Source: Enterobacter pseudoroggenkampii
GTDB lineage: Bacteria > Pseudomonadota > Gammaproteobacteria > Enterobacterales > Enterobacteriaceae
Assembly: GCF_026420145.1 (NCBI RefSeq)
Contig: NZ_JAPMLV010000001.1
Location: forward strand, 248,001-312,000
Length of the DNA stretch: 64,000 nt
Direction of reading: 5' to 3'
This document shows positions 2,423 to 3,357 of the stretch, in pieces. The position numbers were made by a program, and so were the translations under genes. Numbering within the stretch: the stretch's first letter is position 1; each line of letters opens with the position of its first letter. The notes below the pieces were generated by a model. That model had not been told where the DNA came from. It saw only the letters and a program-made list of their open reading frames with translations, and did no database searches.

Positions 2423-2791
2423 TCAGACTGGCCGGATCCACTTCTGGTCTTTTTTCGGCAGCTTATCCACCACCAGATGCCAGGAGTCATTAATGAGGTC
2501 GGTAACCAGTTCCGGCGTCACGTCGTCAGTGCCGTAAAGGGAAATCCAGTGCTTTTTACTCAGATGGTAGCCGGGTTCTACCCCGCGGTAGATCTGCTGG
2601 TTTAACAGTGATTTCTCCGGGTCTGACTTCAGGCTGACGTGCGGCCGCCCGTGCGCGACGGCCACAATCATGAAAATTTTTCCGCCCACTTTGAAGACGT
2701 CAAACTCCGGCCCGAACGGCCAGCAGTGTTCGGTGAACGGCAGTTCCAGGGCCACACGCATAGCGTGCTCCTGTAAGGCTTTACTCTCCAT
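2423..2791 (-). CDS. MmcQ/YjbR-family protein
   Basis: This protein of about 122 residues belongs to the MmcQ/YjbR (DUF419) family. The pattern is PFTEHCWPFGPEFDVFKVGGKIF, with a double-stranded core, followed by VSLKSDPEKSLLL-type spacing and the conserved SKKHW near residue 75. These proteins have a CyaY-like fold and are often called DNA-binding, though the function is poorly defined. The ATG at 2791 overlaps the stop codon that ramR would have in its expected frame (2781-2783). A GTG at 2806, preceded by GAGG, is the alternative start. The gene lies directly downstream of ramR on the same strand and is probably co-transcribed with it. Confidence 0.8.
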   Translation of the reverse strand: MESKALQEHAMRVALELPFTEHCWPFGPEFDVFKVGGKIFMIVAVAHGRPHVSLKSDPEKSLLNQQIYRGVEPGYHLSKKHWISLYGTDDVTPELVTDLINDSWHLVVDKLPKKDQKWIRPV

Positions 2792-3357
2792 TGGCGTCCG
2801 CGCCACATCACCTCAAAGCCGAGCGCTTTAAAATCAACGGCGCGGGACGGATCGCGGGTGGCAAATTCCATCGTGCTTTCAGCCAGCGATAAGAAAAGTG
2901 CATCGCCAAACGTTTTAAATTCATCTGACATAAACACCGGGCGCACCGAGCGGCGGCACAGCTCATGGAGTTCCGGGAACATATCTTTCACCGCCTGTTC
3001 CGTTTCGACGCTCAGCTTTTCACTGACGCCAATCTGGCGGATCGCCGCATGAGAAACGGGGTTACGTATACCCCAGTCCACATAGCTGTTCCAGATATTG
3101 CGGGTATGTTCTTTAGGCAGCGTGATGGTGCGATCGAGGTTCGCCAGCATGGTCTGGCAGAGATCCTGCTTCAGATGCACATAGAGGGCATTCAGCAGAT
3201 CGTCTTTCGTAGCAAAGTAGCGGAACAGGGTACCTTCGGCGACGCCCGCCTTACGGGCAATGAGCGCCGTTGAGGCGGCGATACCTGACTGTGCAAACGC
3301 CGCCGTTGCGGCTTCCAGTAAGGCCTGTTTTTTATCTTCACTCTTCGGACGTGCCAC
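2668..3357 (-). CDS. ramR: TetR-family repressor RamR, with abnormal frameshifted C-terminus
   Basis: RamR represses ramA. It opens with VARPKSEDKKQALLEAATAA and a TetR helix-turn-helix at about residues 25-50 (IARKAGVAEGTLFRYFATKD), followed by the ligand-binding domain. I chose the GTG at 3357, which has AGGGGG 9 nt upstream. The protein follows RamR to MWR at residue 186, then continues for 43 unrelated residues to a total of 229, reading through the start of the YjbR-family gene in the wrong frame. RamR is normally about 193 residues. In the neighbouring frame ADANGE and a stop (2781) follow at once, giving a ~192-194 residue protein if 2 or 8 nt were restored in the CGCG tract near 2800. 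I infer a small deletion. A sequencing error or a natural variant is possible. Confidence 0.85.
   Translation of the reverse strand: MARPKSEDKKQALLEAATAAFAQSGIAASTALIARKAGVAEGTLFRYFATKDDLLNALYVHLKQDLCQTMLANLDRTITLPKEHTRNIWNSYVDWGIRNPVSHAAIRQIGVSEKLSVETEQAVKDMFPELHELCRRSVRPVFMSDEFKTFGDALFLSLAESTMEFATRDPSRAVDFKALGFEVMWRGRQWRVKPYRSTLCVWPWNCRSPNTAGRSGRSLTSSKWAEKFS

What the first reader, a model, noticed from the sequence alone, without database searches (positions are those of the whole stretch)
2668..2810. ramR has a shifted reading frame at its 3' end, while its operator is intact
RamR follows its family to residue 186 and then reads 43 unrelated residues in the wrong frame through the start of the next gene. 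In the neighbouring frame a normal end (ADANGE, stop at 2781) is present. A deletion of 2 or 8 nt within the CGCG tract near 2800 would explain it. Because RamR represses romA-ramA, and the operator at 3474-3493 and the promoter are intact, this could change ramA expression and drug tolerance. The YjbR-family gene overlaps this point, so its translation may also be affected.
Basis: partly seen in the sequence, partly recalled or inferred. Interest (0 to 1): 0.75.

Follow-up and report, generated by a model that had tools for sequence, protein, structure and literature searches.

The report
Repressor ramR with frameshifted tail end
In this Enterobacter-like genome a small deletion scrambles the last few residues of RamR, a repressor that restrains a drug-efflux programme; this is a new example of a well-known kind of mutation, and sequence alone cannot say whether the repressor still works.

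Summary
The frame break is real. The window's ramR (2668-3357, minus strand, GTG start, 229 aa) matches RamR through residue 187, then reads 42 unrelated residues through the start of a YjbR-family gene. Of 110 related ramR loci, 109 end normally at 190-196 aa. The break is not part of a generally broken sequence: 67 of 85 matching relative ORFs run to their ends. The operator is intact and identical to 98 of 110 loci. The same change removes the recognisable yjbR Shine-Dalgarno motif; the yjbR frame is intact. DNA-binding, ligand and most dimerisation parts remain; only the tip of helix 9, with invariant Leu188, is lost. W185-stop alleles, only slightly shorter, were found in tigecycline-selected mutants, so weakened repression is likelier than not but unproven. 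Other tail-altered RamR proteins, including RamR-YjbR fusions, occur in databases. Ordinary new member of a known kind.

The parts
2668..3357 (-). ramR, TetR-family repressor gene, GTG start at 3357, 229 aa, frame-shifted after residue 187
   Evidence: ORF; TetR_N in Pfam; closest solved structures are RamR, 3vvx and engineered variants; relatives end at 190-196 aa
2796..2806 (-). place of the frame break (net 14 nt shorter than relatives of the same architecture)
   Evidence: junction listing and spacing counts
2668..2796 (-). out-of-frame ramR tail: 42 codons plus stop, read through the beginning of yjbR
   Evidence: predicted disordered, pLDDT under 50 from residue 190
2781..2783 (-). stop codon in the frame that relatives use, now out of frame with ramR
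2423..2791 (-). yjbR-like gene (MmcQ/YjbR family), ATG at 2791, frame intact, recognisable Shine-Dalgarno motif lost
   Evidence: NF007603 214.1 bits, above cut-off 183; YjbR in Pfam; Shine-Dalgarno comparison
3474..3493 (.). RamR operator palindrome ATGAGTG-N6-CACTCAT
   Evidence: pattern match; identical to 98 of 110 loci
3548..4651 (+). romA-like metallo-beta-lactamase-fold gene (Lactamase_B_2), intact; the name romA is from position and literature
4684..5025 (+). ramA, AraC-family activator, intact (ORF opens upstream at 4639)
   Evidence: NF012144 223.4 bits, above cut-off 180

Best explanation
A recent small deletion (net 14 nt) at the end of ramR in an Enterobacter close to E. vonholyi put the last codons out of frame. 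The cell makes a RamR with an intact DNA-binding domain, ligand pocket and nearly all of dimerisation helices 8 and 9, but without the last turn of helix 9 (invariant Leu188 and the short tail) and with a 42-residue disordered extension. Most likely the dimer or the protein is less stable, so RamR holds the intact romA-ramA operator less well and romA-ramA is expressed partly or fully without repression. The same deletion takes away the yjbR ribosome-binding motif and the usual stop-start overlap, so YjbR output probably falls. Shown: the frame break, its size, the intact operator, what is kept and lost. Inferred: weaker repression, raised ramA, lower YjbR.
For: 109 of 110 ramR loci end normally; 17 against 31 nt spacing; Leu188 invariant in 40 unaltered RamR proteins; models end helix 9 at 186 in the window protein and 188 in the unaltered P0003, mean pLDDT of residues 181-190 being 71 and 93. 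RamR W185-stop appears among tigecycline-selected mutants of K. pneumoniae (XH495, tigecycline MIC 16 mg/L; PMC5072711, passages) and the E. cloacae complex (CRECC401R, with raised ramA in the paper's discussion; PMC12210861, section 16 and passages), so this end of helix 9 matters. Helices 8 and 9 form the dimer interface of TetR-family regulators (PMC13176608, passages). Shine-Dalgarno motif in 60 of 64 relatives and absent here.
Against: W185, R186 and G187 are kept, and the last conserved RamR motif (residues 172-186 in PMC13176608) is complete. The core shows no clear excess of amino-acid changes (17 synonymous / 7 non-synonymous codons against L005). PMC3117140 reports that ramA and romA levels were not uniformly affected by ramR changes in K. 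pneumoniae (passages), and PMC10909888 lists RamR changes A19V and I141T as unable to raise ramA (passages). Four of 64 normal relatives have an equally weak or weaker Shine-Dalgarno region. The window-protein model is also less confident elsewhere (residues 131-150: 57 and 64 against 88 and 90), so the helix-9 difference is not clean. No dimer was modelled and no expression data exist.
Confidence: 0.55

Rival explanations
1. Neutral tail variant: RamR with the altered tail still folds, dimerises and represses, so the change has little or no effect on ramA.
For: Break lies after the last conserved motif; core intact and without clear excess amino-acid change; normal tails differ in length and sequence among genera, 190-196 aa.
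Against: Leu188 invariant in 40 unaltered proteins; W185-stop alleles in tigecycline-selected mutants; a long foreign tail is added.
Confidence: 0.33
2. Sequencing or assembly error: the isolate has a normal ramR.
For: The window's own assembly is not held, so no reads or second assembly could be checked; the junction was not found in 392 family genomes, of which only five are labelled nearest or same genus.
Against: A net 14-nt loss is not a homopolymer slip; 67 of 85 matching relative ORFs run to within 3 residues of their ends without a stop; 11 other flagged rows are listed in the full report.
Confidence: 0.08
3. Adaptive coupling change: the deletion was kept mainly for its effect on yjbR or on ramR-yjbR translational coupling, not on RamR.
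For: It removes the yjbR Shine-Dalgarno motif present in 60 of 64 relatives; RamR-YjbR fusions recur (P0010, P0027, P0103, P0110, P0120).
Against: No known benefit of altered YjbR; no paper in the held library contains both ramR and yjbR; several of the fusions come from single unnamed contigs and may be errors.
Confidence: 0.04

Closest known systems
RamR W185-stop alleles (K. pneumoniae XH495, PMC5072711; E. cloacae complex CRECC401R, PMC12210861)
   Same: Change at the extreme C-terminal end of RamR with the DNA-binding domain untouched
   Different: Those are truncations that lose W185 onward; here W185-G187 stay and a 42-residue foreign tail is added. Those came from drug selection; the history of this isolate is unknown.
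Clinical ramR loss-of-function alleles of ESBL Enterobacterales (PMC11302662)
   Same: RamR altered with overexpression of ramA, acrA and tolC reported for such alleles
   Different: Most are missense, N-terminal deletions or large C-terminal deletions removing all of helix 9; here helix 9 is nearly complete
Same-frame tail-extended RamR proteins P0001, P0054, P0055, P0057, P0112
   Same: Read on past the usual end into yjbR in the frame seen here
   Different: Different lesions; all but P0001 and P0112 have the Salmonella-type RamR core, as judged by eye; no functional data

Membership tests
RamR (TetR-family repressor of ramA) | TetR-type DNA-binding domain and RamR sequence core | tested here: met
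   TetR_N 48.6 bits; 96% identity to other Enterobacter RamR over residues 1-189; RamR solved structures are the best matches by sequence and by fold
RamR (TetR-family repressor of ramA) | Gene beside and divergent from romA-ramA with the ATGAGTG-N6-CACTCAT operator between | tested here: met
RamR (TetR-family repressor of ramA) | Normal C-terminus of about 193-196 aa completing helix 9 | tested here: not met
   229 aa, tail out of frame after residue 187; Leu188 lost
RamR (TetR-family repressor of ramA) | Represses romA-ramA and is released by ligands | not testable with these tools
   Needs DNA-binding and expression measurements
ramR loss-of-function allele | Sequence lesion in ramR absent from relatives | tested here: met
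   109 of 110 loci lack any such change
ramR loss-of-function allele | Raised ramA and efflux-type drug tolerance | not testable with these tools
   No expression or susceptibility data for this isolate

The most novel reading that the evidence does not exclude
The ramR-yjbR overlap is a recurrent mutation-prone junction at which single small lesions lengthen or fuse RamR with YjbR-derived sequence and at the same time retune yjbR translation, giving graded, partly working RamR variants instead of simple loss of function; the window's allele is one of these.
Probability: 0.1. Interest if true: 0.45.

Novelty: new member of a known kind. Interest (0 to 1): 0.22.

Why it matters
ramR changes are an established route to efflux-mediated drug tolerance. 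An allele that spares almost the whole protein but alters its last turn would help mark where RamR stops being needed, which matters when resistance predictions from genomes call every ramR frameshift a loss of function. It also shows that one lesion can touch two overlapping genes. Otherwise it is an ordinary finding.

Tried and rejected
Deletion of 2 or 8 nt (reader): rejected; net difference is 14 nt in spacing.

Generally poor assembly: not supported. A first scan flagged only losses of over 7% of an ORF and would have missed ramR itself, so it was repeated with a 3-residue limit, which does flag ramR.

Same allele in relatives: a 24-letter junction pattern with one mismatch allowed gave 0 of 392 family genomes; only five of these are labelled nearest or same genus, and collections hold one genome per species, so sister strains were not tested.

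Plasmid, E. coli and phage collections were not searched, because this is a chromosomal Enterobacter locus.

Start-codon picks were wrong for a few loci (for example L022, L043, L026); one search replaces them. In one search, ten loci printed length 0 because translation began upstream of the true start; one search replaces those.

Full report
What is there. The window carries yjbR and ramR on the minus strand and romA and ramA on the plus strand. The window's own assembly is not held. Its nearest held genome, G001, matches it at 94-95% DNA identity over the longest blocks. The contig length (459,753) and ramR identity values suggest that G001 is Enterobacter vonholyi E13 (L033); this is an inference.

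The frame break. ramR opens at GTG 3357 and ends at 2668 (229 aa). It follows the family through Met184-Trp185-Arg186-Gly187 and then diverges. A scan of 110 ramR loci (100 distinct coding sequences, some genomes present twice) gave 109 that end at 190-196 aa and one, L069 (Enterobacter sp. EA-1), of 291 aa that runs on into yjbR. Spacing from the ATG-TGG codons for Met-Trp to the yjbR ATG is 17 nt in the window and 31 nt in 64 of 110 loci; the other 46 have a different spacing or no match to the anchors and were left out of that comparison. The window is thus 14 nt shorter net, which gives the observed frame. L022 and L043 share the sequence directly after the break.

Is it an artefact? Of 126 ORFs from two relatives, 85 match the window. 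With a 3-residue limit, 67 reach their C-terminal end without a stop, 5 have low identity and 13 rows are flagged. Two of the 13 are ramR itself, from both relatives. Two are a long gene at 19340-23536 whose C-terminal part differs from relatives. One is a PF03417-family gene whose stop lies six codons early. One is GCS2, where both stops lie upstream of the gene's own start. Two run into the window edge. Two are ORFs without a Pfam match. The last three are short ORFs (94-161 aa) that were not examined. Nothing resembles the ramR break, but the window's reads could not be checked.

What is kept and lost. TetR_N is intact. PMC13176608 (passages) lists residues 172-186 as the last conserved RamR motif; that stretch is complete here. 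Leu188 is invariant in 40 unaltered RamR proteins and is lost here. Models without a partner chain end helix 9 at residue 186 in the window protein and at 188 in the unaltered P0003; mean pLDDT of residues 181-190 is 71 and 93, and residues 190-229 are below 50. Against a clean reading, the window model is also less certain at residues 131-150 (57 and 64 against 88 and 90). Foldseek puts RamR 3vvx first (E 1.8e-18, TM-score 0.85 by target length).

Operator and neighbours. The palindrome at 3474-3493 is identical to that of 98 of 110 loci; 10 differ within the spacer and 2 lacked the exact pattern in the stretch searched (L029, L024). PMC3117140 (passages) describes this site upstream of romA and a second promoter for ramA in K. 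pneumoniae. The yjbR start and frame are kept. A GAGG, AGGA or GGAG motif lies within 18 nt upstream in 60 of 64 relatives and not in the window; predicted pairing with the anti-Shine-Dalgarno is -3.2 kcal/mol here, median -6.1 in relatives, with 4 of 64 equal or weaker. RamR now terminates inside yjbR instead of at the usual stop-start overlap.

What it probably does. Trp185-stop alleles were found in single-step tigecycline selection in K. pneumoniae (XH495, MIC 16 mg/L; PMC5072711, passages) and in a tigecycline-resistant E. cloacae complex derivative (CRECC401R; PMC12210861, section 16 and passages), whose ramA was said to be significantly increased. The window's break is three codons beyond that point. 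Loss of the last helical turn plus a foreign tail probably weakens the dimer or the protein's stability. On the other side, the conserved motif is intact, the core shows no clear excess of amino-acid change (17/7 synonymous/non-synonymous codons against L005; 25/2 between L005 and L003), and papers report RamR changes without a ramA effect. I put weakened or lost repression at 0.55 and a neutral tail at 0.33.

Recurrence. One search found 747 proteins and listed the best 120; of these 120, 14 were flagged for an unusual end. By eye five read on in the same frame as here (P0001, P0054, P0055, P0057, P0112) and five carry YjbR sequence fused to RamR (P0010, P0027, P0103, P0110, P0120). Several are single sequences from unnamed contigs, so errors among them are possible. 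The exact junction was absent from 392 family genomes, which include only five labelled nearest or same genus. No paper in the held library mentions both ramR and yjbR; frameshifted and truncated ramR alleles are widely reported.

Verdict. It is a new member of a well-known kind of allele, of modest interest for marking the limit of the RamR C-terminus that function needs.

Noticed in passing
L069 (Enterobacter sp. EA-1), ramR end: A second tail-altered ramR: 291 aa, running on into yjbR-derived sequence.
   Followed up: partly
P0048 and P0115 (database proteins): Two RamR proteins of different type (one named Enterobacter hormaechei, one Salmonella-like) end in nearly the same foreign tail, which looks like the end of an insertion sequence (IS26 recalled, not tested).
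   Followed up: no
L024 and L029, upstream of ramR: The exact RamR operator pattern was not found: L024 shows a near-match with a changed half-site, L029 shows no recognisable site in the stretch printed.
   Followed up: no
window 19340-23536: 1398-aa ORF whose C-terminal part differs from both relatives compared, followed by a stretch of small ORFs with little match in them; looks like a polymorphic Rhs-type gene (recalled, not scanned).
   Followed up: no
window 17424-17494, minus: ARAGORN calls a tRNA-Cys inside a 660-aa ORF on the other strand; possibly a false positive.
   Followed up: no
window 37332-38360, minus: PF03417 (AAT) family gene ends six codons earlier than in G001, with a different last few residues.
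   Followed up: partly
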